A DNA stretch of 64,000 nucleotides, taken from Halovulum dunhuangense. GTDB lineage: Bacteria > Pseudomonadota > Alphaproteobacteria > Rhodobacterales > Rhodobacteraceae. The first letter of the stretch is position 1. Each line of letters starts with the position of its first letter. The position numbers and the translations under genes were made by a program. Below the pieces are notes generated by a model. The model made no database searches. It was given only the letters and a program-made list of their open reading frames with translations, and was not told the origin of the DNA. This document shows, one piece after another, positions 2,556-62,140 of the stretch. Where the stretch lies: NCBI RefSeq assembly GCF_013093415.1, contig NZ_JABFBC010000002.1, forward strand, positions 1-64,000, given 5' to 3'.

Positions 2556-3239
2556 TCAGACGACGACGACTTCCAGTTCGCCCAGGCCCTCGATCCTGCA
2601 ATGCATCCTGTCGCCCCTGACGACGGCGTTCACGCCCGACGGGGTGCCCGACATGATGACATCGCCCGGCGCCAGCTCGAAATACTCGGACAGGTAGGAG
2701 ATCATTTCCGGCACCTTCCAGATCATCTGGTTCAGGTCGCCCTGCTGGCGCAGTTCGCCGTTCACGAACAGCTCGATCCGGCCCTGGTCCAGATGGCCGG
2801 TCTTTTCCACCGGCACCAGCGGGCCGACCGGGGCAGACCGCTCGAACGCCTTGCCGATTTCCCACGGCCGGCCAAGCTTCTTGGCCTCGCCCTGCAGGTC
2901 GCGCCGCGTCATGTCGAGGCTGACGGCATAGCCGAAGACATGGTCGAGCGCCTTGTCCAGGGGAATGTTGGTGCCGCCGGTCTTGAGCGCGACGGTCAGC
3001 TCCACCTCGTGATGCACGTCCGAGGTGTGGGGCGGATAGGGAAACTCGCCCGAGGCATCCAGGTTGTCGGGGTTCTTCTGGAAGAAGAAGGGCGGCTCGC
3101 GATCGGGGTCATGGCCCATCTCGATGGCATGGGCGGCGTAGTTGCGGCCGATGCAATAGACCCGGCGCACCGGGAACTCCCCACCCCCGGCGACCGGAAT
3201 GGTCACCGCCGCGGGCGGTTCGATCACGAAGTCAGACAT
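2556..3239 (-). CDS. Fumarylacetoacetate hydrolase (FAH) family protein
   Basis: This 227-residue protein is a single FAH domain of the short type (FAHD1, fumarylpyruvate hydrolase). Visible motifs are CIGRNYAAHA near residue 30, metal ligands in HHEVE (E78, E80) and D109 in SLDMTRRD, and MSGTPSGV near the C-terminus. Members hydrolyse or decarboxylate acylpyruvates such as fumarylpyruvate or oxaloacetate with Mg2+. I set the start at the ATG of MSDF because AAGGGGAG lies just upstream; a longer frame runs back to 3299 without a ribosome site. It is divergent from a GntR regulator and an ABC importer, which suggests it acts on the compound imported. The exact substrate cannot be read from the sequence. 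Confidence 0.85.
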   Translation of the reverse strand: MSDFVIEPPAAVTIPVAGGGEFPVRRVYCIGRNYAAHAIEMGHDPDREPPFFFQKNPDNLDASGEFPYPPHTSDVHHEVELTVALKTGGTNIPLDKALDHVFGYAVSLDMTRRDLQGEAKKLGRPWEIGKAFERSAPVGPLVPVEKTGHLDQGRIELFVNGELRQQGDLNQMIWKVPEMISYLSEYFELAPGDVIMSGTPSGVNAVVRGDRMHCRIEGLGELEVVVV

Positions 3240-3256
3240 TGGGCACTCCCCTTCTG

Positions 3257-3407
3257 GATTGGTCGCAAATTGCGTATACCACGGCGCACAACAGATCAAT
3301 CAAAACCAATCCGGGCGCGATGATATTTCTTTCACTGAAAATGCTTCACTTCCACGGACTCTGTGGTAGCCTCGATTCGAATTGATCCGCATATTGCGCG
3401 ACCAATC
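3257..3407. promoter_or_regulatory. Divergent control region with inverted repeat and GntR-like half site
   Basis: The gap between the FAH-family gene and the GntR gene carries a perfect 10-bp inverted repeat: GATTGGTCGC at 3257-3266 and its complement GCGACCAATC at 3398-3407. A GTATAC palindrome at 3274-3279 resembles the core of many FadR/FCD-type GntR operators. The arms lie close to each start codon. I infer that the adjacent GntR protein binds here to control both directions; binding itself is not shown. Confidence 0.45.
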
Positions 3408-3431
3408 AAGAGAGAAAGCACCGAAGCGCCC

Positions 3432-4133
3432 ATGCATCTCGACCGCAGCATCGCAGAGACGGACCCCGCGGATGGGCTGCTGCGCGCCCTGATCGCCGAG
3501 CGCGGGCTCGGGCCGGGCGACCGCCTGCCCCCCGAGCGCGACCTGATCGAGATGCTGGGCGTGGGCCGCACCGCGCTGCGCCGCGCGCTTGACCAGATGG
3601 AACGCGAGGGGCTGATCTGGCGCCATGTCGGCAAGGGCACCTTCCTGACGGCCGGCACCACGCGCGAGGGCGGCCGCGCGCAGCAGCCGGTTTCGGTCAG
3701 CGCGCTGGCGCGGCGCACCACGCCGGTCAAGATGATGCAGGCCCGGCTGGCGGTGGAACCCGCCATCGCGCGGGAGGCGGCGATCAACGCCTCGGCCGAC
3801 GCGATGGACCGGATCGAGGCGGCGCGGCGCGCAGCCCACGATGCGCCCGACTGGCGCGCCTACGAGGCGGCGGACGACCGCTTTCACCGCGCGGTTGCGG
3901 AAGCGGCGGACAACCTGCCGCTGCTCGCGATCTTCGACCAGCTCAATTCGATCCGCCGCTCGGTCACATGGGGCACGGTCCAGCGCAGCCAGTCCGCCCC
4001 GCCGCGCGACCACAGCAGTTTCGCAGAGCATGACCGGATCCTGGAAACGATCCGGGCGCGCGATGCCGAGGGGGCGCAGACCGCCATGCGCACCCATCTC
4101 AGATCCGTCTCCGGCCGCCTGTTCGGCGGCTGA
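3432..4133 (+). CDS. GntR family (FadR/FCD subgroup) transcriptional regulator
   Basis: This 233-residue protein has an N-terminal winged helix-turn-helix. GDRLPPERDLIEMLGVGRTA is the classical GntR recognition segment at about residues 28-50, followed by a wing ending in GKGTFL. The C-terminal helical FCD effector domain (about 90-225) contains the usual histidine and arginine metal or ligand positions in DDRFHRAVAEAA and EHDRI. FCD regulators sense small organic acids. It heads the ABC transporter genes and is divergent from the FAH-family gene, so it probably controls both. The ATG at 3432 is preferred over one at 3363 because the longer form adds a non-conserved tail. Confidence 0.88.
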   Translation: MHLDRSIAETDPADGLLRALIAERGLGPGDRLPPERDLIEMLGVGRTALRRALDQMEREGLIWRHVGKGTFLTAGTTREGGRAQQPVSVSALARRTTPVKMMQARLAVEPAIAREAAINASADAMDRIEAARRAAHDAPDWRAYEAADDRFHRAVAEAADNLPLLAIFDQLNSIRRSVTWGTVQRSQSAPPRDHSSFAEHDRILETIRARDAEGAQTAMRTHLRSVSGRLFGG

Positions 4134-4202
4134 GCGGCAGGCGGGACCAAAACGGAAAACCGGGCATCGGACAAACCGAGCCGGAAACTGGGGAGTGAAA
4201 CC

Positions 4203-5192
4203 ATGACCATCCTGAGACGCCATCTTCTGTCCGCCACCGCGGGCGCCCTTGCCCTGATCGCCGCGGGCGGGCTTGCCGGCAGCGCCGCCGCGCAGGACGC
4301 GCCGCTGCGCATCGCCTTCGGCGACATCGCCAGCGTCGAAAGCCTCAACCTGCTGATCGCCATGGAGCGCACGAAGGAACGCGGCGTGCCCATGGAGATC
4401 ACCTTCTTCAACTCCGAGGACGTGGCCACGCAGGCCGTGCTTGGCGGGCAGGCCGATATCGGCGTCGGCGCGCCCTACGCCTTCATCCAGAACTCGGGCG
4501 CGCCGATCCGCATGTTCTTCCGCATGAGCGAGCTGCTGTTCTTCCCGGTGGTCAACTCCGAGGTCTACACGGACTGGAAGGATCTCGACGGCCAGGAAGT
4601 CACCGTGCATTCCCGCGGTTCGGGCACCGAGGCGCTGATGCGCCTGATGGAGACCCGCGAGGGGATCAAGTATTCCCAGATCTCCTATGTGCCGGGCTCC
4701 GAGGTGCGGGCCGGCGCGATGCTTCAGGGCACGATCAACGCCACCATCGTGGATGCCAGCGCCTTCCGGCTGCTTCAGGAACAGGGCGGCGACAAGTTCG
4801 TCCGCCTGTCGGTCGAGGGCGTGGAAGCCACCGACGAGGCGCTTTACGCCAACACCAACGTGCTCGATGCCCGCGCCGAGGACATGAAGATCTTCGTCGA
4901 GGAGCTGCTGCGCACCTGGAAGGACATCGACGACAACCCCGCCATCGTGGGCGAGCTGCGCGAGCAGTACGGCCTCTTGGCCGACCTGCCGGCCGAAACC
5001 GTGGCCGAGGCCGTCCCCTATTACGAGGAAGCGGTCGCCAACGGGATCTATCCGCTGGATGGCGGCTCTCCCGAGGTGGTGCAGGGCGACATCGACTTCC
5101 TGTCCGCCGCCGGCCAGTTCGAGGCGGGCGCCCAGGTCAACCCCGAGGATTTCTGGACCTTCGGCCCGCTGAACGCCGCCAAGGGCATGTGA
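4203..5192 (+). CDS. ABC transporter substrate-binding protein, NMT1/TauA-like
   Basis: This 329-residue exported protein begins with a signal peptide containing paired arginines (LRRHLLS), ending near AAA-QD at about residue 30. The rest is an NMT1/TauA/SsuA-type periplasmic binding fold that delivers a small organic solute to the permeases encoded just downstream. The start ATG follows GGGGAG. It is the first gene of a four-gene importer (binding protein, permease, ATPase, second permease) placed after a GntR regulator. The family binds sulfonates, pyrimidine precursors, nitrate or aromatic acids, and I cannot tell which applies here. Confidence 0.85.
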   Translation: MTILRRHLLSATAGALALIAAGGLAGSAAAQDAPLRIAFGDIASVESLNLLIAMERTKERGVPMEITFFNSEDVATQAVLGGQADIGVGAPYAFIQNSGAPIRMFFRMSELLFFPVVNSEVYTDWKDLDGQEVTVHSRGSGTEALMRLMETREGIKYSQISYVPGSEVRAGAMLQGTINATIVDASAFRLLQEQGGDKFVRLSVEGVEATDEALYANTNVLDARAEDMKIFVEELLRTWKDIDDNPAIVGELREQYGLLADLPAETVAEAVPYYEEAVANGIYPLDGGSPEVVQGDIDFLSAAGQFEAGAQVNPEDFWTFGPLNAAKGM

Positions 5193-5273
5193 TCCGCAAG
5201 ACCCGGTGCCGGGGCGCCCTGCCCCGGCAAGCCCCCGGCACCGGGCCGCGACTTCAGGACAAGGCAGGAACCA

Positions 5274-6101
5274 ATGGCAACTGGCATACCGGGCGCAAGG
5301 ACACAGGCCACGACGGCCGGCCCGCTCGGCCAGCTGACGGAAACGCTGGCGGGCATTCCCGCGATCTGGCGGATCCTGTCGCTGGCGCTTTTCTTCACCG
5401 CGTGGGAACTGGCCGCGCGCACCAACTTCAACTGGGCCTTCCCCGGCTTTCTCGACACCGCCGCGGCCTTCTGGTCGATGCTGGCCGACGGATCCATGAT
5501 CCAGGCCTACATGCGCACGATCGAGCCGCTGATCATCGGGCTGGTGCTGAGCCTGGTGATCGGGGTCGGCGCGGGCGTGCTGATGGGGCTTCGGGCCGAT
5601 GTGGAATGGGCGACGCTGCCCATCTTCATCACCATGCAGGCGGCCCCCATGGCGGCGCTGATCCCGCTCATCACCTTTGTCTACGGCATCGGTCTGACAT
5701 CCAAGGTGCTGGCGGTCTGCATGCTGGCGATGCCGGTCATCGCGATCAACAGCTACAAGGCGGTGCGCAACGTGCCCCCCTCGCTGGTGACGATGTGCCA
5801 GTCCTTCATGGGCTCGCGCCGCGAGCAGGTGTTCAAGATCATCCTTCCGGCGGCCAGCCCGATGATGTTCGCGGGCATCCGGCTGGGCGTGGCCGAGGGC
5901 TTTTCCGGCGTGGTGCTGGCCGAGCTGCTGATCACCCCCACGGGCATCGGCGACCTGATCACCTACAACCGCTCGATCGCGAAATTCGACCACATGTACG
6001 CGGCCATCGTGTCCATCGTGATCTTTGCCGTGGTCGCCGTCACCCTGATGCACAAGCTGGAATCGGTGCTGTTCCGGCCCGAGAAACGGACTGCGAAATG
6101 A
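5274..6101 (+). CDS. ABC transporter permease (SsuC/TauC-like), first copy
   Basis: This 275-residue inner-membrane protein has about six membrane segments and the cytoplasmic EAA-type loop (GSRREQVFKIILPAASPM, then IRLGVAEGF) that docks the ATPase. It belongs to the BPD_transp_1 permeases of nitrate/sulfonate/taurine importers. AGGCAGGA precedes the ATG. Its stop overlaps a possible ATG for the ATPase. A second, different permease gene follows the ATPase, so the channel may be a heterodimer. Confidence 0.87.
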   Translation: MATGIPGARTQATTAGPLGQLTETLAGIPAIWRILSLALFFTAWELAARTNFNWAFPGFLDTAAAFWSMLADGSMIQAYMRTIEPLIIGLVLSLVIGVGAGVLMGLRADVEWATLPIFITMQAAPMAALIPLITFVYGIGLTSKVLAVCMLAMPVIAINSYKAVRNVPPSLVTMCQSFMGSRREQVFKIILPAASPMMFAGIRLGVAEGFSGVVLAELLITPTGIGDLITYNRSIAKFDHMYAAIVSIVIFAVVAVTLMHKLESVLFRPEKRTAK

Positions 6102-6130
6102 ACATCCGCCCCCAACTGAAAGAGGTTCCC

Positions 6131-6907
6131 ATGGCCAGCAATGCCCGGCCCGAGCCGATCATCGAGATCCGCGGGATCCACAAGACCTATGGCGGCTCTG
6201 TCGTCGCGCTCAAGGACATCAACCTGGAACTCTTCCGCGGCCAGATGACCAGCCTTCTGGGCCCGTCGGGCTGCGGCAAGACCACGCTTCTCAAGATCAT
6301 CGCGGGCCTTCTGGATGCCGATGCGGGCGAGGTGCGGGTCGCGGGCAAGCCGGTCACGGGGCCGGGGCCGGAACGCGCCTTCGTGTTCCAGGACTTCGCG
6401 CTGATGCCCTGGGCAAGCGTGCTGCGCAACGCGGCCTTCGGGCTGGAGCTGCGCGGCGTGGCCAAGTCCGAGCGCGAGGACAAGGCGCGCCACTACATCA
6501 GGGAGGTCGGGCTGACCGGCTTCGAGGACAAGTACCCGCACGAGCTGTCGGGCGGCATGCGCCAGCGCGTGGGCCTGGCGCGGGCGCTGGCCGTGGATGC
6601 CGACGTGCTGCTGATGGACGAGCCCTTTTCGGCGGTGGACGAGCAGACCCGCCGCAAGTTCCAGGAGGACCTGATCCGCCTGCGCGAGATCGAGAAGAAG
6701 ACCTTCATCATCGTGACCCACTCGATCGAGGAAGCGGTCTACCTGTCGGACCGCATCGTGCTTCTGTCGCCGCGGCCGGGCCGGATCAGCCAGATCATCG
6801 ACCCCGACATCCCGCGCAACGGCGATCCCGACGCGATCCGGCGCGACAGCGCCTATCTCGACCTGATCGACGACATCTGGCGCGGCCTGCGCGCCTATGT
6901 GGAGTAG
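6131..6907 (+). CDS. ABC transporter ATP-binding protein (SsuB/TauB-like)
   Basis: This 258-residue ATPase has Walker A GPSGCGKTT, the signature LSGGMRQR, Walker B VLLMDEPF and the switch histidine in VTHSI. It is of the nitrate/sulfonate/taurine importer class and energises uptake by the two flanking permeases. The ATG at 6131 has GAAAGAGG just upstream, so it is preferred. An alternative ATG at 6098 overlaps the stop of the previous gene as ATGA and would add 11 residues. Confidence 0.9.
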   Translation: MASNARPEPIIEIRGIHKTYGGSVVALKDINLELFRGQMTSLLGPSGCGKTTLLKIIAGLLDADAGEVRVAGKPVTGPGPERAFVFQDFALMPWASVLRNAAFGLELRGVAKSEREDKARHYIREVGLTGFEDKYPHELSGGMRQRVGLARALAVDADVLLMDEPFSAVDEQTRRKFQEDLIRLREIEKKTFIIVTHSIEEAVYLSDRIVLLSPRPGRISQIIDPDIPRNGDPDAIRRDSAYLDLIDDIWRGLRAYVE

Positions 6908-6911
6908 GGGC

Positions 6912-7664
6912 ATGACGGTATATGGCGTCAAACTCCCCAAGATGGCGGCCCTGCTGTTCTGGGTCGTGATCTGGGAAATCGTCGGCCGGTTCGAGCTGAT
7001 GCTGCTCTTTCCGCCCTTCACCGAGGTGCTGGCCGCGCTGGTCGAGGTGGTGACCACCCCCAGCTTCGCGGAGGCCGCGCGGATCACCGTCTACTGCTAC
7101 CTGACGGGCCTTGCCATCGCCGCCGTGAGCGGCATTGCGCTGGGGATGCTGATGGGGCTGGTGCCCTTCGCCGACCGGCTGCTGAACATGTGGGTCAACA
7201 TCTTCCTGTCGGCGCCGCTTTCCGCGCTGGTGCCGGTCATCATGATCCTGTTCGGCATGGGCGAGCCCACGGTGATCGTGACCGTGTTCATGTTCGCGGT
7301 CTGGATCATCGCGCTCGATACCCGGGCGGGCGTGCTGCATGTCGCGCCCTCGCTGATGGAGATGGCCGAAAGCTTCGGCGCATCGCGCACGCAGCGGCTG
7401 AAGATGATCCTGCTCTCGGCGCTGCCGGAAATCCTTGCAGGGATCCGGCTGGGCGTGGTGCGCGGGGTCAAGGGCGTCGTGATCGGCCAGCTTCTGGTGT
7501 CGATCATCGGCGTTGGGGCGTTGTTCCAGCTTTATTCGAACAACTTCCTGATGGCGCATTTCTGGGCGCTGATCCTGATCCTGTTCGCCTTTGCCCTCAG
7601 CCTGGCCGAGATCATCGGCCGGCTGGAAAACCGCGTCGAATACTACGCCGGCGCCCGCGCCTGA
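6912..7664 (+). CDS. ABC transporter permease (SsuC/TauC-like), second copy
   Basis: This 250-residue permease of the same family as the one at 5274 has six predicted membrane segments and the EAA-type loop GASRTQRLKMILLSALPEIL. Its sequence is clearly different from the first permease, so the pair are paralogues rather than a recent duplication. The ATG at 6912 follows GGAGTAGGGG and starts 4 nt after the ATPase stop. An upstream ATG at 6897 overlaps the ATPase and has no ribosome site. It closes the importer operon; a GC hairpin with a short T-rich tail follows. Confidence 0.87.
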   Translation: MTVYGVKLPKMAALLFWVVIWEIVGRFELMLLFPPFTEVLAALVEVVTTPSFAEAARITVYCYLTGLAIAAVSGIALGMLMGLVPFADRLLNMWVNIFLSAPLSALVPVIMILFGMGEPTVIVTVFMFAVWIIALDTRAGVLHVAPSLMEMAESFGASRTQRLKMILLSALPEILAGIRLGVVRGVKGVVIGQLLVSIIGVGALFQLYSNNFLMAHFWALILILFAFALSLAEIIGRLENRVEYYAGARA

Positions 7665-7683
7665 GCGGGGCCGCGGTTCAGGC

Positions 7684-7716
7684 GGGCCGGGCCATGCGCC
7701 CGGCCCGTTTCATTTG
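7684..7716 (+). terminator. Hairpin terminator after the ABC importer
   Basis: GGGCCGGGC at 7684-7692 pairs perfectly with GCCCGGCCC at 7698-7706 around a 5-nt loop and is followed by GTTTCATTT. It ends the plus-strand importer operon and slightly overlaps the stop of the convergent matB gene. Confidence 0.65.
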
Positions 7717-9227
7717 GCGGCGAACAGATCCGCGTATTCCCGCCGCAACTCGGCCTTCTGCACCTTGCCCATCGTGTTGCGCGGCAGCGTGTCCACCACG
7801 ATCAGCCGACGCGGCAGCTTGAAGGCGGCAACATTGCCCCGCAGGCTTGCGGCGATGGCATCGAGATCCGGCACCGCCCCCGCCTGCGGCACGATCAGCG
7901 CCACCGGGGTTTCCCCGAAATCGGGATGCGGCACGCCGATCACGGCGCTTTCCAGCACCCCCGGCATCGCATCGAGTTCCAGCTCGATTTCCTTGGGGTA
8001 GATGTTGTAGCCGCCCGAGATGATCAGGTCCTTGGCGCGCCCGACGATATGCACATAGCCGTCGCCGTCCCGCAGGCCCAGGTCGCCGGTCTGGAAAAAT
8101 CCGTCGGGGCGCAGTTCCTCGGCGGTCTTCTCGGGCATCCGCCAGTAGCCCAGGAATACGTTCGGCCCCCGCACCTCGATCTGCCCGATCTGGCCGTGGT
8201 CCAGCGCCGCGCCCGTCGCGGGATCGGTGATCTTCAGCTCGACCCCCGGCAGCGGGAAGCCCACCGTGCCCGCGCGCCGGTCGCCCTCGTAGGGGTTCGA
8301 GGTGCTCATGTTCGTCTCGGTCATCCCGTAGCGTTCCAGGATCCGGTGGCCGGTTCGCTCCTCGAAGCGGGTGTGCGTCTCGGCCAGCAGCGGCGCGCTG
8401 CCCGACACGAAAAGCCGCATGTGGGCGACCAGCTCACGGGTGAATTCCGGCGCGTCCAGAAGCCGCGTGTAGAAGGTCGGCACCCCCATCATCGCGGTCG
8501 CCCGCGGCAGGGCGCGCAGCACCGCGTCGGGGTCGAATTTCGGCAGGAAGATCGTCGCTCCGCCCGCAAGCAGCATCACGTTGGTCGCGACGAACAGCCC
8601 GTGGGTGTGAAAGATCGGCAGCGCGTGCAACAGCACGTCCGCATCGGTGAAGCGCCAGGTCTCGGCCAGCACGCGCGCGTTCGAGATCAGGTTCTCCTGG
8701 CTCAGCATCGCCCCCTTGGATCGGCCCGTCGTCCCCGAGGTGTAGAGCAGCGCCGCCAGGTCATGCAGATGCCGCGGCGCGGTCGGGAAGCGGTCCGGCC
8801 GGTCGGCCGCGAGGGCCGCCAGCGTGCCCCCGCCCCGGGCGTCCAGCGTGAGCAGCTCGGCCCCCGCATCCGCGGCGACCGGGGCCAGCGACTGCGCATC
8901 CGCCGGATCGGCCACGAAGACCCGCGCCGCGCTGTCGCCCAGGAAATAGGCCAGCTCGTGCGCCGTGTAGGCGGTGTTGAGCGGCAGGAACACCGCGCCC
9001 ACCTGCACGCAGGCCGCGTAAAGCGCCAGCGCATCGGGCGATTTCGCCACCTGCGCCGCCACCCGGTCGCCCGGCTCGACGCCAAGCCCGCTGAGCGCAT
9101 GGGCCAGCTTCGCCACGCGCCTCAGGAACGCGTCATGCGTGATGGTGTCGCCATCCCCGGTCAGCAGGAACGGCGTATCGGCCCCGGCATGGGGGGCGAA
9201 CAGCGTGTCGAACAGCGGGTTGCTCAT
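7710..9227 (-). CDS. matB: Malonyl-CoA synthetase (MatB-type acyl-CoA ligase)
   Basis: This 505-residue adenylate-forming ligase has the P-loop LLYTSGTTGRSKGA, YGMTE, TGDLG and the C-terminal catalytic lysine in PRNTMGKVQK. The length and the N-terminal pattern (MSNPLFDTLF...) fit malonyl-CoA/methylmalonyl-CoA synthetases, which activate malonate for fatty acid synthesis or decarboxylation. The start is the ATG behind GAGGAGG at 9227; the frame itself is open upstream to 9254. It is a single gene between the importer and the transaminase. No malonate decarboxylase or carrier is adjacent, so its role in the locus is unclear. Confidence 0.85.
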   Translation of the reverse strand: MSNPLFDTLFAPHAGADTPFLLTGDGDTITHDAFLRRVAKLAHALSGLGVEPGDRVAAQVAKSPDALALYAACVQVGAVFLPLNTAYTAHELAYFLGDSAARVFVADPADAQSLAPVAADAGAELLTLDARGGGTLAALAADRPDRFPTAPRHLHDLAALLYTSGTTGRSKGAMLSQENLISNARVLAETWRFTDADVLLHALPIFHTHGLFVATNVMLLAGGATIFLPKFDPDAVLRALPRATAMMGVPTFYTRLLDAPEFTRELVAHMRLFVSGSAPLLAETHTRFEERTGHRILERYGMTETNMSTSNPYEGDRRAGTVGFPLPGVELKITDPATGAALDHGQIGQIEVRGPNVFLGYWRMPEKTAEELRPDGFFQTGDLGLRDGDGYVHIVGRAKDLIISGGYNIYPKEIELELDAMPGVLESAVIGVPHPDFGETPVALIVPQAGAVPDLDAIAASLRGNVAAFKLPRRLIVVDTLPRNTMGKVQKAELRREYADLFAAK

Positions 9228-9287
9228 GCGGGACCTCCTCTTTCGCAAGCGCATTAGCGCCTGCGAGAGAGAATTTCCACTACCCGC

Positions 9288-10658
9288 TCAGCCGAGCACG
9301 TTCAGCACCGCCTGCGCGGTCTTGTCCACGACCTCGTCCGCCTCGACCGCGCTCAGGCAGAGCGGCGGGGCAAAGCCCAGGATGTCGCCCTGCGGCATGG
9401 CGCGCGCGATCACGCCCAGGCCTGCCAGTTCGGCCGCGATGCGCGCCCCGACCTTTTCGGACGGATCGAAGAAGGCGCGCGTCTCGCGATCCTTGACGAA
9501 CTCGACGGCCGCGAGCATCCCCTCGCCACGCACATCGCCCACATGGGCGTGCGCGCCCAGCGCGTCGCGCAGGCCCGCCAGCAGGTGCGCGCCCACCTTT
9601 TCCGCATTGCCCACCAGCCCCAGCCGGTCGATCAGCGCCAGGTTGGCGACGCCCGCCGCCGCCCCGATGGGATGCGCTGAATAGGTCCAGCCATGCCCGA
9701 AGGGACCGAATTCGTCGGTCCCCTCCTCAAGCACCTTCCACATCCGTTCCGACACGATCGACCCCGACAGCGGCGCATAGGCCGAGGTCAGGCCCTTGGC
9801 GATGGTGATGAGATCGGGCTTCAGCCCGTAATGCTCGGATCCGAACATGGTGCCCAGGCGACCGAACCCCGTCACCACCTCGTCCGCGATCAGCAGGATG
9901 TCGTGCTTCTCCAGGATGGGCTGGATCGCCTCCCAGTAGCCGGCGGGCGGCGGCACGATGCCCCCCGTCCCCAGCAGCGGCTCGGCGATGAAGGCGGCGA
10001 TGGTATCGGCCCCCTCGCGCGCGATCAGCGCCTCCAGGTCGGCGGCGCATTGCGCGGTGAACTCGGCTTCCGACAGCGACAGCTCGGCCCGGCGAAAGTA
10101 ATCCGGCGCGGTGGTGTGAAGCACGTTCGCCAGCGGCAGGTCGAACTTCTTGTGGAACAGCTCCAGCCCGGTCAGCGAGCCGGTCATCAGCCCCGAGCCG
10201 TGATAGCCGCGCCAGCGCGAGATGATCTTCTTCTTTGCGGGGCGGCCGAGGATGTTGTTGTAGTACCAGACCAGCTTGACGTTGGTCTCGTTCGCATCCG
10301 ACCCGCCCAGCCCGAAATAGACCTTGGACATGTGGTCGGGCGCGCGGTCCATGACCATCTTGGCCAGGGTGATCGACGTCTCGGTGCCGTGGCCGACATA
10401 GGAATGGTAATAGGCGAGTTCCGCCGCCTGCGCCGCGATGGCATCGGTGATCTCGCGCCGCCCGTAGCCTGCGTTCACGCAATAGAGCCCGGCGAACGCA
10501 TCCAGCAGCTTTCGCCCGTCGCGATCCTCGATATGCACGCCCGAGGCGCCGGTGATGATCCGCGATGGCGTCTCGCCGCGCGCGTGCTGCGCCAGGTGAG
10601 TCGAGGGATGGAAGAAGTTCTCGCGATCCCAGGCGGCCAGTTGGTCGTTCGTCAGCAT
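9288..10658 (-). CDS. Class III PLP aminotransferase, possible diaminobutyrate or omega-amino acid transaminase
   Basis: This 456-residue fold-type I aminotransferase has GGSDANETNVKL (119-129), the cofactor-binding D259-E260 pair in ADEVVTGFG and the Schiff-base lysine K288 in TIAKGLTSAY. It belongs to the group holding taurine-pyruvate, beta-alanine-pyruvate and ectoine-pathway diaminobutyrate (DoeD) transaminases. The start at 10658 has GGAGAAGAGGG upstream. It is divergent from an ectoine-hydrolase-like gene and an ArgE-type deacetylase. Their products would yield 2,4-diaminobutyrate, so a DoeD-like role is attractive. Taurine or beta-alanine remain real alternatives. Confidence 0.85.
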   Translation of the reverse strand: MLTNDQLAAWDRENFFHPSTHLAQHARGETPSRIITGASGVHIEDRDGRKLLDAFAGLYCVNAGYGRREITDAIAAQAAELAYYHSYVGHGTETSITLAKMVMDRAPDHMSKVYFGLGGSDANETNVKLVWYYNNILGRPAKKKIISRWRGYHGSGLMTGSLTGLELFHKKFDLPLANVLHTTAPDYFRRAELSLSEAEFTAQCAADLEALIAREGADTIAAFIAEPLLGTGGIVPPPAGYWEAIQPILEKHDILLIADEVVTGFGRLGTMFGSEHYGLKPDLITIAKGLTSAYAPLSGSIVSERMWKVLEEGTDEFGPFGHGWTYSAHPIGAAAGVANLALIDRLGLVGNAEKVGAHLLAGLRDALGAHAHVGDVRGEGMLAAVEFVKDRETRAFFDPSEKVGARIAAELAGLGVIARAMPQGDILGFAPPLCLSAVEADEVVDKTAQAVLNVLG

Positions 10659-10893
10659 GTCCCTCTTCTCCTTCATCGCGTGGCATGTGCTGCGCCCAGC
10701 ATCGCGGGCGGGGGCGGGAATGTGAACCCCCTGACGCAACGTCGCCCGGTGGCCGTGCTGCATCGGTGCCGCACGGGTGCCGGATCGGCCCTTGACGCGG
10801 CGGGCCGGGCGGGCCGAAGGTCGGGGCGAACGTGTGCCCTGCCGGGGTCTTCCGACGTTCCGATACCCGACACGACAGGAGGACTTGATCCGG

Positions 10894-12078
10894 ATGGGCC
10901 CCTCGCAGCTTCCCTTCAGCCGGCACGAATATTCCCGCCGCCTGCGCAAGACCCGCGCCGCCATGGACGAGGCGGGCATCGAGGCGCTGTTCGTCACCGA
11001 TCCGTCGAACATGGCCTGGCTCACCGGCTATGACGGCTGGAGCTTCTATGTCCCGCAGGGCGTGCTGGTGCTGCCCGACCAGGACCCGGTCTGGTGGGGC
11101 CGCGCGATGGACGGCAACGGCGCGCTCAGGACCGTCTGGATGGAGTCCGACCGCGTCACCGTCTATGCCGAGGAATACGTCCAGTCCACCGTGCGCCACC
11201 CGATGCAGGACCTGGCCGCCAAGCTGGCCGACTGGGAACTGGGCAGCGCCCGGATCGGGGTCGAGATGGACAACTACTACTATTCCGCCAAGGGCCATGC
11301 GGCGCTGACGGGAAGCCTGCCCAACGCCACCATCACCGACGCCACCGGGCTGGTGAACTGGCAGCGCGGGGTCAAGTCCGACGAGGAAATCGCCTTCATG
11401 CGCAAGGCGGCGCGCATCTCGGAAAAGATCGTGGACGGGCTTCTGGACCGGATCGAGCCGGGCGTGCCCAAGCACGAGGTGGTGGCCGACGCGCTCCGCG
11501 ACGCGATCCGGGGCACGGGCGACGCCTGGGGCGACTACCCGGCGATCATGCCGATGCTGCCCAGCGGCATCGACGCGTCCGCGCCGCACCTGACCTGGGA
11601 CGGGCGCCCCTTCGCCAGCGGCGAGGCCACCTTCTTCGAGATCGCCGGCTGCTACCGCCGCTACCATGCACCGCTCTGCCGGACGCTGTTCCTGGGAACG
11701 CCGCCCGACGACATGCTGCGCGCCGAGGCGGCCCAGATCGAGGGGCTGGAGGCGGGACTCGATGCCGCGCGCCCGGGCAACCTGGCGGGCGATGTGGCGC
11801 GCGCGGTCAAGGACGCCCTGGCCCGCGCCGGCATCGACAAGCGCGGGCGCGTGGGCTATCCCATCGGCCTGTCCTATCCGCCCGACTGGGGCGAACGGAC
11901 GGTATCCCTGCGCGAGGAGGACGAGACGGTGCTGGAGCCTGGCATGACCTTTCACTTCATGCCGGGGCTGTGGATGGACGACTGGGGACTCGAGATCACC
12001 GAAAGCATCCTGATCCGCGACAGCGGCCCGGCCGAGACGCTGTGCAACCGCCCGCGCCGGATGTTCGTGAAGCCCTGA
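10894..12078 (+). CDS. doeA: Ectoine hydrolase-like protein (M24/creatinase fold)
   Basis: This 394-residue protein has a creatinase N-terminal domain (about 1-155) and a pita-bread M24 domain (about 160-390). Metal-dependent M24 peptidases carry two aspartates in the DAG..Y..D.TRT segment. Here that stretch reads FFEIAGCYRRYHAPLCRT (247-264), with E249 and P260 in their places, so it cannot bind metal normally. This is the creatinase/ectoine-hydrolase pattern, in which the glutamate acts directly. GYDGWSFYV (45-53) and YPPDWGERT (328-336) also fit DoeA/EutD, which open the ectoine ring to N-acetyl-2,4-diaminobutyrate. GGAGGA lies 10 nt before the ATG. The stop overlaps the next start (TGATG). 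Confidence 0.72.
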   Translation: MGPSQLPFSRHEYSRRLRKTRAAMDEAGIEALFVTDPSNMAWLTGYDGWSFYVPQGVLVLPDQDPVWWGRAMDGNGALRTVWMESDRVTVYAEEYVQSTVRHPMQDLAAKLADWELGSARIGVEMDNYYYSAKGHAALTGSLPNATITDATGLVNWQRGVKSDEEIAFMRKAARISEKIVDGLLDRIEPGVPKHEVVADALRDAIRGTGDAWGDYPAIMPMLPSGIDASAPHLTWDGRPFASGEATFFEIAGCYRRYHAPLCRTLFLGTPPDDMLRAEAAQIEGLEAGLDAARPGNLAGDVARAVKDALARAGIDKRGRVGYPIGLSYPPDWGERTVSLREEDETVLEPGMTFHFMPGLWMDDWGLEITESILIRDSGPAETLCNRPRRMFVKP

Positions 12079-13244
12079 TGTCCCTTCTCGCCGACAGCAT
12101 CGCAGAGCTTGACCGGCTGGTGGCCTTTCCGACCGTCTCGGCGCGGCCCAATATCGACATGGCGCGCCACCTGGCCCGCCGGCTGGCCGACCTTGGCGCG
12201 CGGGTCGAGCTGATCGCCACCCCCGACGGGACCAAGGCCAACGTGCTGGCCAGCCTCGGGCCGGAAGGCGATGGCGGGATCGTGCTGTCGGGCCATACCG
12301 ACGTGGTCCCGGTCGAGGACCAGGAATGGAGCACCGATCCCTTCGCGCTGCATCAGGCCGACGGCCGTCTCTACGGGCGCGGCACCTGCGACATGAAGGG
12401 CTTCATCGCGGCCTGCATGGCGGTGGCGCCGCGCCTTGCCGCGCGCGAATTGCGCCGCCCGCTGCACTTCGCCTTTACCTACGACGAGGAAACCGGCTGC
12501 CTCGGCGCGCAGCACCTGGTCGAGACGCTGCGCGCCCGCCGGCTGCGCCCGGCGCTGGCCATCATCGGCGAGCCGACATCGATGCGGATGGTCGAGGGGC
12601 ACAAGGGCTGCTGCGAATACACCACCATCTTCACCGGGCGCGAGGGGCATGGCTCGGACCCGGGCCGCGGGGTGAACGCGGTGGAATACGCCGTGCGCTA
12701 CGCCGCCCGCCTGCTGGAGTTGCGCGCCGACCTTACAGCCCGCGCGCCCGATCCCAGCCGCTTCGATCCGCCCTGGACCACGATCAACCTTGGCCGGCTG
12801 TCCGGCGGGCAGGTCCACAACGTGATCCCGCCCCGCGCCGAGATCGACTGGGAAATGCGCCCCGTGACGCAGGCCGACGCCGATCATGTCCGCGCCTCCC
12901 TCGCCCGGCTGGTCGAGGAGGAACTCCTGCCCGAGATGCGCCGCACCGCCCCCGAGTCCGCGATCGAGACCCGCGTCATCGGCGAGGTGGCGGGGCTCGT
13001 CCCGATGGAGGAAAACGCCGCCCGCGACCTGGTGGCGGCGCTGACGGGGGCGAACGCCGCCGACTGCGTGCCCTTCGGCACCGAGGCGGGGCTGTTCCAG
13101 TCGCTGGGCATGTCGGTGGTGGTCTGCGGCCCCGGCGCCATCGCGCAGGCGCACAAGGCCGACGAATATCTCGAGACGGCGCAGCTTGAAGCCTGTCTCG
13201 ACATGCTGACCGCGCTGGAGGCCGATCTTGTCCGCGACCGCTGA
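12078..13244 (+). CDS. argE: ArgE-type M20 deacetylase
   Basis: This 388-residue M20 zinc amidohydrolase has zinc ligands in SGHTDVVP, RGTCDMKGF, YDEETGC and the C-terminal AQAHKADEY, with a dimerisation lid in the middle. Closest family: acetylornithine deacetylase ArgE, which removes an acetyl group from N-acetylornithine. Its start overlaps the stop of the ectoine-hydrolase-like gene (TGATG), so the two are translationally coupled. Known ectoine pathways use a DoeB deacetylase of a different (AstE-like) family. An ArgE-type enzyme here could deacetylate N-acetyl-2,4-diaminobutyrate, one carbon shorter than N-acetylornithine. Ordinary arginine biosynthesis is the alternative. Confidence 0.83.
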   Translation: MSLLADSIAELDRLVAFPTVSARPNIDMARHLARRLADLGARVELIATPDGTKANVLASLGPEGDGGIVLSGHTDVVPVEDQEWSTDPFALHQADGRLYGRGTCDMKGFIAACMAVAPRLAARELRRPLHFAFTYDEETGCLGAQHLVETLRARRLRPALAIIGEPTSMRMVEGHKGCCEYTTIFTGREGHGSDPGRGVNAVEYAVRYAARLLELRADLTARAPDPSRFDPPWTTINLGRLSGGQVHNVIPPRAEIDWEMRPVTQADADHVRASLARLVEEELLPEMRRTAPESAIETRVIGEVAGLVPMEENAARDLVAALTGANAADCVPFGTEAGLFQSLGMSVVVCGPGAIAQAHKADEYLETAQLEACLDMLTALEADLVRDR

Positions 13245-14448
13245 GGCGCATGACAGCCGCTATTCCTGGACAAGGCTCGCCATCACGCTGGCGCTGGCGT
13301 CCATCGGCAATGTCGGCATGTGGGCCATCATCATCACCCTGCCGGCGGTGCAGGCGGATTTCGGCATCGACCGTGGCGGCGCCTCGCTGCCCTATGTCGC
13401 GACGATGCTGGGCTTCGCGCTGGGCAACCTGGTGCTCGGGCGCGCGGTGGACCGCTTCGGGATCGTCCCGGTGCTGATCGGCGCCGCACTGTCGCTGGGC
13501 GCGGGCTTCGCGCTGTCGGCGCTCGCGCCCTCGGTGGTGGTCCTGTCGCTGCTGCAATTCGCCGTGGGCCTTGGCACCGCGGCCAGCTTCGGGCCGCTGA
13601 TCGCCGACATCTCGCACTGGTTCCTGCGCCGCCGTGGCATCGCCGTGTCCATCGCCGCCAGCGGCAACTACCTGTCTGGCGCGATCTGGCCCGTGGTCCT
13701 CAGCCCGCTTCTGGCAAGCCAGGGCTGGCGGGCGGTGTTCCTGGCCCTGGCCGGCATCGCGGTCGCCGGCATGATCCCGCTCGCGCTTATGCTCAAGCGC
13801 CGCCTGCCCGAGGGGGCGAGCGTGGCCGCAGACACCGCGGCGGCGCTGGCCCGCAGCGCCTCGGGCCTGTCGCCGCGGGCGCTCAGCGGGCTTCTGGCCA
13901 TCGCGGGCATCGGCTGCTGCGTGGCGATGTCGATGCCGCAGGTCCATATCGTCGCCTATTGCGTGGACCTGGGCTACGGCCCCGCCGTGGGCGCCGAGAT
14001 GCTGTCGCTGATGCTTCTGGGCGGCGTCGCCTCGCGCATCGTCTCGGGGCTGATCGCGGACCGGCTGGGGGGCGTGCGCACGCTTCTGCTGGGGTCCGTC
14101 CTGCAGATGCTGGCGCTGTTCTTCTACCTGCCCTTCGACGGGCTGGTATCGCTTTATGTGGTCAGCCTGGTGTTCGGCCTTGCCCAGGGCGGCATCGTGC
14201 CGGCCTATGCCATCATCGTGCGCGAATACCTGCCCGCGCGCGAGGCGGGGGCGCGCGTGGGCTTCGTCATCATGGCGACCCTGATCGGCATGGCGCTGGG
14301 CGGCTGGATGTCGGGCTGGATCTATGACGTGACCGGCAGCTACCACCTTGCCTTCATCAACGGCATCGTGTGGAACGCGGCCAACATCGTCATCATGCTG
14401 GCGATCCTCGCGCGCGGGCGGGCGGGGGCGGCCCCGCTGCCGGCCTGA
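13228..14448 (+). CDS. MFS transporter
   Basis: This 406-residue carrier has 12 predicted membrane helices and the MFS loop motif GRAVDRFG between helices 2 and 3, echoed in the second half by GLIADRLGG. It belongs to the monocarboxylate/oxalate-formate-like MFS group. The start is a TTG at 13228 inside the end of the deacetylase gene, supported by GGAG 7 nt upstream. The 17-nt overlap suggests coupled translation in the ectoine-like operon, so it may import or export a substrate of that pathway. Confidence 0.82.
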   Translation: MSATAEAHDSRYSWTRLAITLALASIGNVGMWAIIITLPAVQADFGIDRGGASLPYVATMLGFALGNLVLGRAVDRFGIVPVLIGAALSLGAGFALSALAPSVVVLSLLQFAVGLGTAASFGPLIADISHWFLRRRGIAVSIAASGNYLSGAIWPVVLSPLLASQGWRAVFLALAGIAVAGMIPLALMLKRRLPEGASVAADTAAALARSASGLSPRALSGLLAIAGIGCCVAMSMPQVHIVAYCVDLGYGPAVGAEMLSLMLLGGVASRIVSGLIADRLGGVRTLLLGSVLQMLALFFYLPFDGLVSLYVVSLVFGLAQGGIVPAYAIIVREYLPAREAGARVGFVIMATLIGMALGGWMSGWIYDVTGSYHLAFINGIVWNAANIVIMLAILARGRAGAAPLPA

Positions 14449-14501
14449 ACCGCGACACCAAATCCCTTGCGCGCGACAGGCGCCGAGAGGACACTCCGGC
14501 C

Positions 14502-15875
14502 ATGAGGATCACCCGCCGCACCCTGCTTGGAACCAGCCTTGCCGCCAGCCTTGCCCCGCGCCTCGCGCTGGGCGCGGATGCGCCCCTGCGCGCGCAGGTG
14601 GCGCAGGTCCGGCTTGCCCCCGAGGGCTACCCCGCCACCGACCTGTGGACCTATGACGGCGGCGTGCCCGGCCCCGCGATCCGGGTGCCGCAGGGCGGCC
14701 GCCTGAGCCGCCTGCTGGTCAACGACCTGCCCCAGCCCACCACGATCCACTGGCACGGCATCCGCCTGCCCAACGCCATGGACGGCGTGCCCGGCATGAC
14801 GCAGGCCCCCGTCGCCCCCGGCGAAAGCTTTGCCTACGACTTCGCCGCGCCCGATGCCGGCACCTACTGGTACCACTCGCATTTCCGCTCGCTCGAACAG
14901 GTGGCGCGCGGGCTGTCGGGCCCGCTGATCGTGACCGAGGCGGAAGGCGCGCCAGAGGTGGACCGCGACGAGGTGATCCACCTGTCGGACTGGCGCCTGT
15001 CGGACACCGCCGCCATCGCCGACGATTTCGGCCATCCGCACGACCTGTCCCATGCCGGGCGGCTGGGCAATTTCGTCACCGCCAACGGCCAGTCGGAACT
15101 GCGCTACCAGGCCCGCCAGGGCGAGCGGTTCCGCCTGCGCCTGATCAACGCCGCCCCCGCCCGCATCTTCGAGCTGCGCCTTCAGGGCCTGTCGGGCTGG
15201 GTCGTGGCGGTGGACGGCATGCCGCTCGACGCGCCCACGGCGATCGGGCAGATCTTCGTCGGGCCCGGCCAGCGGGTGGACATGCTGGTGGACGTGACCG
15301 CCGATCCCGGCGACGAGGCCTTCCTGCTGGAGATCGACCGCGGCGAGGGGTTTTCCCTTGCCTCCTTCGCCGTCGCCCCCGGGGGCGGCACCCCCCGCAG
15401 GCCCGCCCCCGCGGCGCTGCCCGCCAATCCCGGCCAGACGCCGCTTGGGCTTTCGGATGCGCGGCCGGTGCCGCTTGCGATGGATGGCGGCGCCATGCGC
15501 GGCCTGTCACAGGCGGTCTGGAAGGGCCGGACGCTGGACGGCCGCAGCCTTGCGATGGAGGGGCAGTTCTGGGCCTTCAACGGCATCGTCGGCATGGGCG
15601 ATGCGCCCCTCATCGAAGCCGCGATCGGCGAGACGCTGCGCATCCCCATCGCCAACCGCACCGCCTTTCCGCACGCGATGCACCTGCACGGCCACCATTT
15701 CCGCGAACTGCGCGCCGATGGCAGCCTGGGCCTGTGGCGCGACACCATCCTGATCGACCCGGGCCAGACGCGCGAGATCGTCTTTCTGGCCGACAACCCC
15801 GGCGACTGGATGTTCCATTGCCACATGCTCTCGCACCACGCCGCGGGCATGGGGACATGGATCAGGGTGGTGTGA
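14502..15875 (+). CDS. Tat-exported multicopper oxidase
   Basis: This 457-residue three-cupredoxin-domain multicopper oxidase begins with a twin-arginine signal (RITRRTLLGTS) and a cleavage region near residue 25. All four copper motifs are present: HWHG, YHSH, HLHGHHF and the C-terminal HCHMLSHHAAGM, which gives the type 1 and type 3 ligands with an axial methionine. Such periplasmic enzymes oxidise Cu(I), metals or phenols with O2. No methionine-rich insert typical of CueO is apparent. It follows the MFS gene by about 50 nt with its own ribosome site (GAGAGG) and may be separate from that operon. Confidence 0.9.
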   Translation: MRITRRTLLGTSLAASLAPRLALGADAPLRAQVAQVRLAPEGYPATDLWTYDGGVPGPAIRVPQGGRLSRLLVNDLPQPTTIHWHGIRLPNAMDGVPGMTQAPVAPGESFAYDFAAPDAGTYWYHSHFRSLEQVARGLSGPLIVTEAEGAPEVDRDEVIHLSDWRLSDTAAIADDFGHPHDLSHAGRLGNFVTANGQSELRYQARQGERFRLRLINAAPARIFELRLQGLSGWVVAVDGMPLDAPTAIGQIFVGPGQRVDMLVDVTADPGDEAFLLEIDRGEGFSLASFAVAPGGGTPRRPAPAALPANPGQTPLGLSDARPVPLAMDGGAMRGLSQAVWKGRTLDGRSLAMEGQFWAFNGIVGMGDAPLIEAAIGETLRIPIANRTAFPHAMHLHGHHFRELRADGSLGLWRDTILIDPGQTREIVFLADNPGDWMFHCHMLSHHAAGMGTWIRVV

Positions 15876-15881
15876 GGGCCC

Positions 15882-16193
15882 TCAATGCGTCCAGGACACC
15901 CGGCGCCCGCTGGCGAAGTTGTCGCCATAGCCGCCGGGGCGGATGTTGGGCTTGCGGGGCTTGGGCTGCATCACCTGGTAGGGGATGCCATGCTTCTCGG
16001 CATAGGCGCGCGCCTGCTCCAGGTCGTCGAATTCCAGCCGCACCTGCGCCTGGGTATCGCCCGATCCGGTCCAGCCCATGAGCGGGTCCTTGACCCGCGC
16101 CTCGGCCGGCTCGAACTCCAGCACCCAGTCCTTCGTCCGCGCCTGCCCCGAGGACATCGCCGATTTCGCCGGTTTGAAGATGCGCGCAACCAT
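15882..16193 (-). CDS. NDUFS4-like complex I accessory subunit
   Basis: This 103-residue soluble protein of the ETC_C1_NDUFA4 family is the 18-kDa accessory subunit of respiratory complex I found in alphaproteobacteria and mitochondria. It begins [16 protein letters not shown], then WVLEFEP, and has the core [20 protein letters not shown], a region conserved in NDUFS4. It binds the peripheral arm of NADH dehydrogenase. The ATG at 16193 fits the family start; a longer frame to 16388 runs through a large hairpin and is unlikely. It is encoded alone, convergent with the multicopper oxidase. Confidence 0.9.
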
Positions 16194-16270
16194 CCGTTCT
16201 CTCCGCAGAAATTCCGCCCCCTTATCGCGTGCAACGGCCCGTGGGGCAAGGGCGGATCGGGGGTTCGGCG

Positions 16271-16330
16271 TGCGCCAGCCGGGCGCGGGGAGTGAGGGGT
16301 GGGGTTCGGGGCCCGCGCCCGGCTGGCGCA
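16271..16330. repeat. Large perfect inverted repeat upstream of uvrB
   Basis: A 19-bp arm at 16271-16289 (TGCGCCAGCCGGGCGCGGG) is exactly complementary to 16312-16330, with a 22-nt G-rich loop. It lies between divergent genes, so it is not the terminator of either. It could be an intergenic mobile palindrome of the REP type or a regulatory structure in an RNA leader. Confidence 0.8.
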
Positions 16331-16499
16331 TCGTTGCTTGCCCCTCATGGTTAACAAGCTGGCCGCAGCCCTTGCAACAGGAAAACAACCCTTGGGTTGA
16401 TATATATTTTCAGAACGCAACCTCTGGTTTTAACCCGATCTTTACCTTGATTCCCCCCACCCCCCGGACACATCTATGCGCTCAGAGAGGATCCCCCCG

Positions 16500-62084: not shown

Positions 62085-62140
62085 GTGTCTTCCTCCTGTC
62101 GAATGGATGTCTGGTTGTTGTTGGTCTTGTGCCGGGTCCG

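What the first reader, a model, noticed from the sequence alone, without database searches (positions are those of the whole stretch)
9288..14448. Variant ectoine-degradation locus with an ArgE-type deacetylase
An ectoine-hydrolase-like gene is translationally coupled to an ArgE-type M20 deacetylase and an MFS carrier and is divergent from a class III transaminase. Known pathways use DoeA, then DoeB (AstE-like), then DoeD. Here an unrelated deacetylase may replace DoeB. Regulator EnuR and the usual Ueh/Ehu transporters are absent from the window.
Basis: partly seen in the sequence, partly recalled or inferred. Interest (0 to 1): 0.7.

Follow-up and report, generated by a model that had tools for sequence, protein, structure and literature searches.

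The report
ArgE-like deacetylase in ectoine breakdown
Many marine and some soil alphaproteobacteria seem to digest the salt-stress compound ectoine with a second-step enzyme of a different family from the textbook one, an enzyme that databases label as an arginine-synthesis enzyme.

Summary
The window carries a DoeA/EutD-like ectoine hydrolase (M24), an ArgE-family M20 deacetylase whose start overlaps the hydrolase stop (TGATG), an overlapping MFS gene, and a divergent class III transaminase. The window's genome has no match to DoeB/EutE models and no EnuR or EutB over cut-off.

Within the family this M20 is a distinct group (52-68% identical to the window's; next ArgE at most 46%), adjacent to the hydrolase in 49 of 58 loci. 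Of 183 family genomes with the hydrolase, 115 carry this M20 only, 35 EutE only, 3 both, 30 neither; a phylogeny-aware test was underpowered. Elsewhere the M20 stands in eutE's place in ectoine clusters, two with EhuABCD (L066, L194), two with hydrolases over the DoeA cut-off (L192, L194), one ordered eutA-eutB-eutC-eutD-M20.

Best reading: non-orthologous replacement of DoeB by an M20-family N-alpha-acetyl-DABA deacetylase, widespread and labelled argE. No enzyme assay exists. SAR11 may hold a related locus.

The parts
10894..12078 (+). DoeA/EutD-like ectoine hydrolase (M24 fold, 394 aa)
   Evidence: TIGR02993 574.8 bits (cut-off 613), PDB 6twk/6yo9 'Ectoine hydrolase DoeA' 495 bits; Glu249 aligns with residue 255 of 6twk and is E in 119 of 120 aligned rows
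12078..13244 (+). ArgE-family M20 deacetylase, proposed N-alpha-acetyl-L-2,4-diaminobutyrate deacetylase (388 aa)
   Evidence: TIGR01892 392.6 over 297.7; PRK07522 456.6 over 412; H73, D75, D105, E137, E138, E165, H359 invariant in the window protein and 11 orthologs
12076..12080 (+). TGATG stop-start overlap of hydrolase and deacetylase
   Evidence: sequence
13228..14448 (+). MFS transporter (406 aa from TTG), possible carrier; locus-specific
   Evidence: PF07690 158.9 bits; TTG with GGAGG 6 nt upstream; no close homolog in 265 fetched loci apart from the window's own copy
9288..10658 (-). class III transaminase, ortholog of Atf/DoeD (456 aa)
   Evidence: PRK07482 811.9 over 687; 76% identical gene stands in a canonical cluster with EnuR, eutABCDE and AsnC, locus L152
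10659..10893 (.). 235-base divergent intergenic region between transaminase and hydrolase
   Evidence: sequence
7710..9227 (-). malonyl-CoA synthetase (MatB-like) 60 bases downstream of the transaminase on the same strand; role in this locus unclear
   Evidence: PRK07514 801.3 over 558 (scanned as 7710-9254); start 9227 chosen by ribosome-binding site

Best explanation
The locus is an ectoine catabolic module in which the second enzyme has been replaced by an unrelated one. The M24 protein opens the ectoine ring to N-alpha-acetyl-L-2,4-diaminobutyrate (inferred from family). The M20 protein, of the dinuclear-metal ArgE family, removes the acetyl group to give L-2,4-diaminobutyrate and acetate (inferred). 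The expected substrate is N-alpha-acetylornithine shortened by one CH2, so the reaction asks little of an ArgE fold. The divergent transaminase then makes aspartate semialdehyde (inferred from orthology with Atf/DoeD), and an unlinked dehydrogenase would finish to aspartate. Shown here: gene identity, tight coupling, conserved linkage, co-occurrence with hydrolase genes, absence of EutE/DoeB, and presence in eutE's place in ectoine clusters of other genomes.
For: G217 is not among the 74 genomes with an EutE match at E 1e-40. (2) L194 (Mesorhizobium MAG): M24 634 bits, over the DoeA cut-off of 613, EhuABCD all over cut-off, M20 next to it. L192 (Nitratireductor luteus, no Ehu in between): M24 622.7, over cut-off, EutB over cut-off, EutC, AsnC, SSD, AT, M20. 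(3) Pelagibacterium lentulum L207: TRAP genes divergent from eutA-eutB-eutC-eutD-M20, EutB and EutC over cut-off, EutD 606, EutA 238 under 318. (4) Own genome without EutE/DoeB. (5) Adjacency 49 of 58; M20 in 118 of 183 hydrolase-positive but 4 of 112 hydrolase-negative genomes. (6) Adjacency-labelled M24 tree needs 2 changes between M20 and EutE over 83 rows. (7) M20-linked and EutE-linked hydrolases share 83 columns that are at least 97% conserved with the same residue in both. (8) RefSeq annotates doeA directly followed by 'argE' (53.6% identical to the window M20) on a Mesorhizobium sp. 131-2-5 plasmid.
Against: No biochemical or growth data. The window's hydrolase is below the curated DoeA cut-off (574.8 against 613), as are those of L066 and L207. 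Of 111 genomes with a hydrolase of at least 541 bits, 10 have neither M20 ortholog nor EutE, and of all 183, 30 have neither, so other routes exist. The Fisher test (2.9e-16) ignores shared ancestry; the independent-pairs test was not significant (10 pairs: 1.2 same way, 2.1 opposite on average; without two-copy genomes 7 pairs: 0 and 2.1). In 9 of 58 loci the M20 is not next to the hydrolase. Outside the family the M20 group is less sharply bounded (next best 388 bits, 51%). Three columns differ by group, one of them (262, C or S) between the invariant P260 and R263. The window itself lacks close EutB, EutC, Ehu and DoeX homologs.
Confidence: 0.82

Rival explanations
1. The M24-M20 pair breaks down a different N-acyl or cyclic amidine compound (an ectoine analogue, an opine-like or polyamine derivative), and its neighbourhood with ectoine genes in some genomes is secondary.
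For: 28 of 55 M24+M20 loci carry a PotABCD-like ABC transporter whose binding protein (one tested) hits no NCBIfam model at E 1e-30; the window's M24 is below the DoeA cut-off.
Against: Members of the same M24-M20 type lie in ectoine clusters with Ehu, EutB and EutC genes and two pass the DoeA cut-off; 83 near-invariant columns, the aligned catalytic glutamate included, are shared with EutE-linked EutD.
Confidence: 0.1
2. The M20 is an ordinary arginine-pathway ArgE that happens to sit beside doeA; the true N-alpha-acetyl-DABA deacetylase is elsewhere.
For: It passes the ArgE models over cut-off, and an ortholog is annotated argE in RefSeq.
Against: No DoeB/EutE in the genome; a second ArgE-like protein (45% identical) exists at G000:C2:221871; linkage to doeA, or, where doeA is elsewhere, to the DoeD-type transaminase in 9 of 27 loci.
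Confidence: 0.04
3. The pair belongs to a bypass without free DABA, as Schwibbert et al. suggested for DoeB-less genomes (transamination of N-alpha-acetyl-DABA first, then N-acetyl-aspartate), so that the M20 acts on a later acetylated intermediate.
For: Proposed in PMC3187862 section 12 by analogy; the same kinds of gene would be needed.
Against: The transaminase is the same ortholog that accompanies EutE in a canonical cluster (L152, 76% identity), where DABA is the published substrate of Atf/DoeD (passages of PMC5924519).
Confidence: 0.04

Closest known systems
DoeA-DoeB / EutD-EutE ectoine degradation (Halomonas elongata, Ruegeria pomeroyi)
   Same: Hydrolase family, transaminase ortholog, divergent or collinear clustering, and in relatives EutB and EutC, Ehu or TRAP transporters, Lrp/AsnC- and SSADH-like genes.
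   Different: The deacetylase is an M20/ArgE protein instead of the succinylglutamate desuccinylase/aspartoacylase type (M14) DoeB/EutE; no EnuR in the window's genome.
ArgE, N-acetylornithine deacetylase (PDB 7rsf)
   Same: Family, metal-ligand pattern (roles recalled) and the kind of bond cut.
   Different: Gene context is ectoine catabolism; family members are 52-68% identical to the window's, other ArgE-like proteins there at most 46%.
Putative Bacillota ectoine clusters with abgB and no eutE (PMC13188858)
   Same: An amidohydrolase gene (AbgB is M20-type, recalled) beside eutD homologs, eutE absent, a transporter gene written 'msf'.
   Different: Different synteny (pucR-eutBCD-atf, abgB-thrA-adh), distant EutD; the authors assign abgB no step, and their Proteobacteria set was narrowed to genomes with EutE and EutB.

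Membership tests
Ectoine hydrolase DoeA/EutD (TIGR02993) | Score over the curated equivalog cut-off of 613 bits | tested here: not met
   574.8 bits; relatives with the same partner reach 622.7 and 634
Ectoine hydrolase DoeA/EutD (TIGR02993) | Catalytic glutamate (EutD Glu255; role recalled from Mais et al. 2020, paper not held) | tested here: met
   Glu249 in the FFEIAG motif; E in 119 of 120 rows
Ectoine hydrolase DoeA/EutD (TIGR02993) | Hydrolyses ectoine to N-alpha-acetyl-DABA | not testable with these tools
   needs an enzyme assay
DoeB/EutE deacetylase (TIGR02994, AstE/AspA type) | AstE/AspA-type protein encoded beside the hydrolase or in the genome | tested here: not met
   0 matches to PF04952 and TIGR02994 in the window's genome
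ArgE acetylornithine deacetylase (TIGR01892) | Score over cut-off and metal ligands (roles recalled) | tested here: met
   392.6 over 297.7; ligand residues invariant in 12 sequences, the window's included
ArgE acetylornithine deacetylase (TIGR01892) | Acts on acetylornithine in arginine synthesis | not testable with these tools
   no assay; presence of ArgJ in the genome was not searched
EnuR-controlled ueh/eut cluster | EnuR (NF052286) present | tested here: not met
   best genome match 108.7 bits against 480
5-hydroxyectoine branch (EutABC) | EutB (TIGR02991) present | tested here: not met
   best genome match 183.7 bits against 413.35; EutA and EutC not searched genome-wide
DoeD/Atf DABA transaminase | Orthology with the transaminase of a canonical eutDE cluster | tested here: met
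   76% identity to the gene in L152, which holds MocR, TRAP, usp, EutA, EutB, EutC, M24, EutE, AsnC, AT in that order (TRAP and usp named by eye)

The most novel reading that the evidence does not exclude
The M20 deacetylase is the second of two independent answers to the same step, is the commoner one in the window's family, and reaches SAR11. Pelagibacterales genomes hold a DoeA-like M24 next to an EutA-like gene and a PotABCD-like transporter, 6-12 kb from an M20 that groups with the Pelagibacterium ectoine-locus M20. If so, the most abundant ocean heterotrophs could mineralise ectoine by this route.
Probability: 0.3. Interest if true: 0.78.

Novelty: new variant of a known kind. Interest (0 to 1): 0.62.

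Why it matters
Two surveys of ectoine consumers counted genomes by adjacent eutD and eutE (Mais data set as described in PMC8739950) or narrowed to EutD plus EutE plus EutB (PMC13188858). In the family sampled here EutE over its cut-off is in 38 of 183 hydrolase-positive genomes, the M20 in 118. If the M20 does the DoeB step, ectoine use is undercounted by such rules, many 'argE' annotations name the wrong function, and the remark of Schwibbert et al. 2011 that alternative routes must exist in genomes without the full doe set gets a concrete candidate that a single enzyme assay can test.

Tried and rejected
Chance neighbourhood: rejected by 49 of 58 adjacency and by the same pair in Mesorhizobium, Nitratireductor and Pelagibacterium.

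Hidden EutE elsewhere in the genome: rejected.

A specificity signature in the hydrolase: only 3 columns differ by group (at least 85% in each), so no strong sign of a different substrate, though one lies between invariant positions.

Phylogenetically independent test of mutual exclusion between M20 and EutE: tried, underpowered and not significant. In that tree the 51 rows outside the M20-linked clade have 14 with M20 and no EutE, 17 EutE, 2 both, 18 neither; many of these rows had been fetched on purpose, so the proportions are not a sample.

Monophyly of the M20 group: the quick tree puts SAR11 M20s beside Pelagibacterium M20s (SH-aLRT 88) and needs 2 changes; one long row and seven rows of odd composition make it weak.

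MFS as a conserved part of the system: rejected. Structure prediction was not run: it would not settle substrate choice.
Full report
WHAT IS THERE. The interval holds four protein genes. On the minus strand lies a class III transaminase, 9288-10658. On the plus strand, after 235 bases, lie an M24-fold protein (ATG 10894-12078), an M20 protein (ATG 12078-13244) and an MFS transporter (TTG 13228-14448). The M24 stop and the M20 start share one base (TGATG), and the MFS start lies 17 bases inside the M20 gene with GGAGG six bases before it, so translational coupling is plausible. A MatB-like malonyl-CoA synthetase follows the transaminase by 60 bases on the same strand.

IDENTITIES. The M24 protein scores 574.8 bits on NCBIfam TIGR02993 (ectoine hydrolase DoeA), under the curated cut-off of 613, and 495 bits against the solved ectoine hydrolase 6twk (that this is R. 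pomeroyi EutD is recalled). It has the glutamate that aligns with residue 255 of 6twk; that this residue is catalytic I recall from Mais et al. 2020, which is not held. The M20 protein passes the ArgE models TIGR01892 (392.6 over 297.7) and PRK07522 (456.6 over 412). Its seven expected metal-site residues (roles recalled from ArgE) are invariant in an alignment of 12 sequences, its own included. The transaminase passes PRK07482. A 76% identical gene stands in locus L152 in the order MocR, TRAP, usp, EutA, EutB, EutC, M24, EutE, AsnC, AT, the canonical cluster, so I take it as the Atf/DoeD ortholog (TRAP and usp were named by eye, the MocR, EutA, EutB and EutC clusters through one tested member each).

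THE GENOME. G000 has 3.66 Mb in 26 contigs, 99.99% complete. It holds one DoeA-like protein; two other M24 proteins match TIGR02993 at 61 and 20 bits. It has no PF04952 or TIGR02994 match, no EnuR (108.7 bits against 480) and no EutB (183.7 against 413.35). A second ArgE-like protein, 45% identical to the M20, lies at C2:221871-222965. EutA, EutC, Ehu, Ueh, ArgJ and the DoeC dehydrogenase were not searched genome-wide; in the window itself no close homolog of Ehu, Ueh, EutABC, EnuR or EutE was found.

THE M20 GROUP. In 385 genomes of the class the gap is narrower: 4 outside the family reach 440 bits or more (G400, G410, G514, G670), the next two are at 388 and 387 bits (51% and 49%), then a continuum.

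LINKAGE. Eighty hydrolase loci were fetched, chosen by me along the list. Of 58 with M24 60-75% identical to the window's, 49 have the M20 directly downstream on the same strand and none has an EutE hit. Of 22 with M24 below 60%, 13 have EutE directly downstream, 1 the M20, 8 neither. In 27 loci fetched around an M20 without an adjacent hydrolase, 9 have the transaminase (at least 70% identical) and 6 of these also AsnC, as in L119/L174 Brevirhabdus pacifica with AT-SSD-AsnC divergent from M20.

PHYLETIC PATTERN. Of 183 hydrolase-positive genomes, 115 have the M20 only, 35 EutE (over cut-off) only, 3 both (G013, G119, G267) and 30 neither. The M20 occurs in 118 of 183 hydrolase-positive and 4 of 112 hydrolase-negative genomes; one of the 4, G147, has an adjacent hydrolase on a short contig that missed the threshold. 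Fisher p for M20 against EutE is 2.9e-16, but this ignores shared descent. On a hydrolase tree the independent-pairs test was not significant: 10 pairs with 1.2 same way and 2.1 opposite on average; 7 pairs with 0 and 2.1 when two-copy genomes are left out. On the adjacency-labelled tree of 105 rows (66 M20, 17 EutE, 22 none), M20 and EutE partners need 2 changes: one clade of 77 rows (64 M20, 13 none, 0 EutE; SH-aLRT 95) plus Pelagibacterium. So adjacency changed partner few times, which is why the naive test overstates the case.

ECTOINE CLUSTERS WITH M20 IN EUTE'S PLACE. This is the strongest evidence that the substrate is ectoine. L066 (G217): EhuA, B, C, D over cut-off, EutB over cut-off, EutC (over PRK08291, under TIGR02992), Lrp/AsnC-like, SSADH-like, transaminase, divergent from M24-M20; its M24 scores 580.7, under 613. 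G217 is not among the 74 genomes with an EutE match. L194 (Mesorhizobium MAG): SSD, AsnC, EutC, EutB, EhuABCD over cut-off, M24 634 bits, over 613, then M20; the transaminase would lie beyond the stretch. L192 (Nitratireductor luteus): AT-SSD-AsnC-EutC-EutB divergent from M24 (622.7, over cut-off)-M20. L173 (Falsiruegeria mediterranea), L175 (Pseudooceanicola atlanticus) and L205 (Roseibium MAG) have the same order as L192. L207 (Pelagibacterium lentulum): TRAP genes divergent from eutA-eutB-eutC-eutD-M20; L214 (P. lacus): eutB-eutC-eutD-M20; their EutDs score 606 and 603, just under 613. None of the eight loci checked (these seven and L208, Aquibium) has an EutE hit within the fetched stretch; the named genomes were not searched for EutE as a whole, and Falsiruegeria has a second DoeA-like protein of 506 bits. 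On plasmid NZ_AP023251.1 of Mesorhizobium sp. 131-2-5 the public annotation reads doeA followed by argE.

HYDROLASE CONSERVATION. Across 83 M20-linked and 17 EutE-linked hydrolases, 83 columns are at least 97% conserved with the same residue in both groups; 3 columns (237, 262, 316) differ by group. Position 262 (C or S) lies between invariant P260 and R263, so a subtle effect is not excluded.

TRANSPORT AND REGULATION. A PotABCD-like ABC system accompanies 28 of 55 M24+M20 loci and 0 of 17 M24+EutE loci; MocR/EnuR accompanies 0 of 55 and 6 of 17 (clusters at 33% identity, stretches of about 18 kb). The congener G074 (L064) has M24-M20 followed by that ABC system, where the window has its MFS. 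I infer that importers are exchanged freely and that the MFS is the local importer candidate; this is not shown.

MECHANISM. Shown: genes, overlap, linkage, presence in eutE's place. Inferred: ectoine to N-alpha-acetyl-DABA (M24), to DABA plus acetate (M20), to aspartate semialdehyde (transaminase), to aspartate (unlinked dehydrogenase). DoeB itself works on the N-alpha and not the N-gamma isomer (PMC3187862, passages), and ArgE cuts the N-alpha-acetyl bond of a molecule one CH2 longer.

LITERATURE. [quoted passage not shown] PMC8739950 (passages) states that the reference set of 363 clusters included only adjacent eutD/eutE. PMC13188858 (abstract, section 8, part 1 of section 9, passages) narrowed to genomes with EutD, EutE and EutB, and reports Bacillota clusters with abgB and without eutE. 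Against a claim of general oversight: the 2017 survey by Schulz et al., as described in PMC5924519 (passages), used EutD alone as query and found 539 orthologs; I have not read it and cannot say whether it saw the M20. PMC5320631 was read in passages; its argE entries belong to GABA regulons, not ectoine. Searches (listings capped: 20 of 146, 25 of 60, 5 of 5, 4 of 4, 12 of 28, 12 of 21) showed no title or abstract, and the passages read no statement, that assigns an ArgE/M20 enzyme to this step; most subscription papers are not in that library.

SAR11. Of 29 SAR11-type genomes that hold an M20 relative (41-46% identical), 26 also hold a DoeA-like M24 of 444-480 bits (misses G682, G687, G696; two of the 29, G499 and G588, are unnamed and placed by size and by the tree). 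In the five stretches fetched (L265-L269) the M24 lies beside an EutA-like and near a PotD-like gene, 6.2-11.8 kb from the M20 and facing it. In G499 the order is guaA, panB, EutA-like (192 bits, under 318), M24 (464), Pot-like ABC genes, FadB-like and two other genes, agmatinase, aldehyde dehydrogenase, M20. The agmatinase and the polyamine role proposed for SAR11 PotABCD (PMC8437039, passages) allow a polyamine reading. PMC10030771 (passages) reports an ectoine permease in all SAR11 subclades except IIIa.2 and LD12. This stays a lead.

VERDICT. It is a new variant of a known pathway, common rather than rare in this family, and labelled as an arginine enzyme. What is missing is one enzyme assay.

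Noticed in passing
L265 (G499) 2726-16436; L266-L269; L226 14392-16308: SAR11 genomes hold a DoeA-like M24 beside an EutA-like gene and near a PotD-like transporter gene, with an M20 6-12 kb away facing it (five stretches); possible ectoine locus in SAR11.
   Followed up: partly
L048 1808-4736; L122 5331-7165; L162; L206: A second M24 paralog (PepQ-like, not DoeA) stands beside an EutA-like gene and, in L048, a diaminopropionate ammonia-lyase-like gene near the PotABCD-like transporter; function unknown.
   Followed up: partly
L105 and L112: Hydrolase loci with EutB, EutC and TRAP genes (L112 also EnuR, usp, EutA) but no EutE beside them; both genomes (G009, G226) carry the M20 elsewhere.
   Followed up: partly
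L244 (MAG labelled Actinomycetota): M20 of 50% identity with an adjacent DoeA-like M24: the pair may reach beyond Alphaproteobacteria, or the bin is mixed.
   Followed up: no
L301 8415-10097 (NZ_CP015322.1, Mesorhizobium amorphae): Only a short M24 piece and an M20 annotated in two pieces: the pair looks decayed there.
   Followed up: no
window 3363-7664: FCD-type GntR regulator, NMT1-type substrate-binding protein, two permeases and an ATPase resembling taurine/sulfonate systems next to the locus; substrate unknown.
   Followed up: no
window 7710-9227: MatB-like malonyl-CoA synthetase 60 bases downstream of the transaminase on the same strand, a pairing not explained by ectoine catabolism.
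   Followed up: no
window 61284-63499 and 49865-50775: A distant TRAP transporter and two adjacent Lrp/AsnC-type regulators, not close to the ectoine ones.
   Followed up: no
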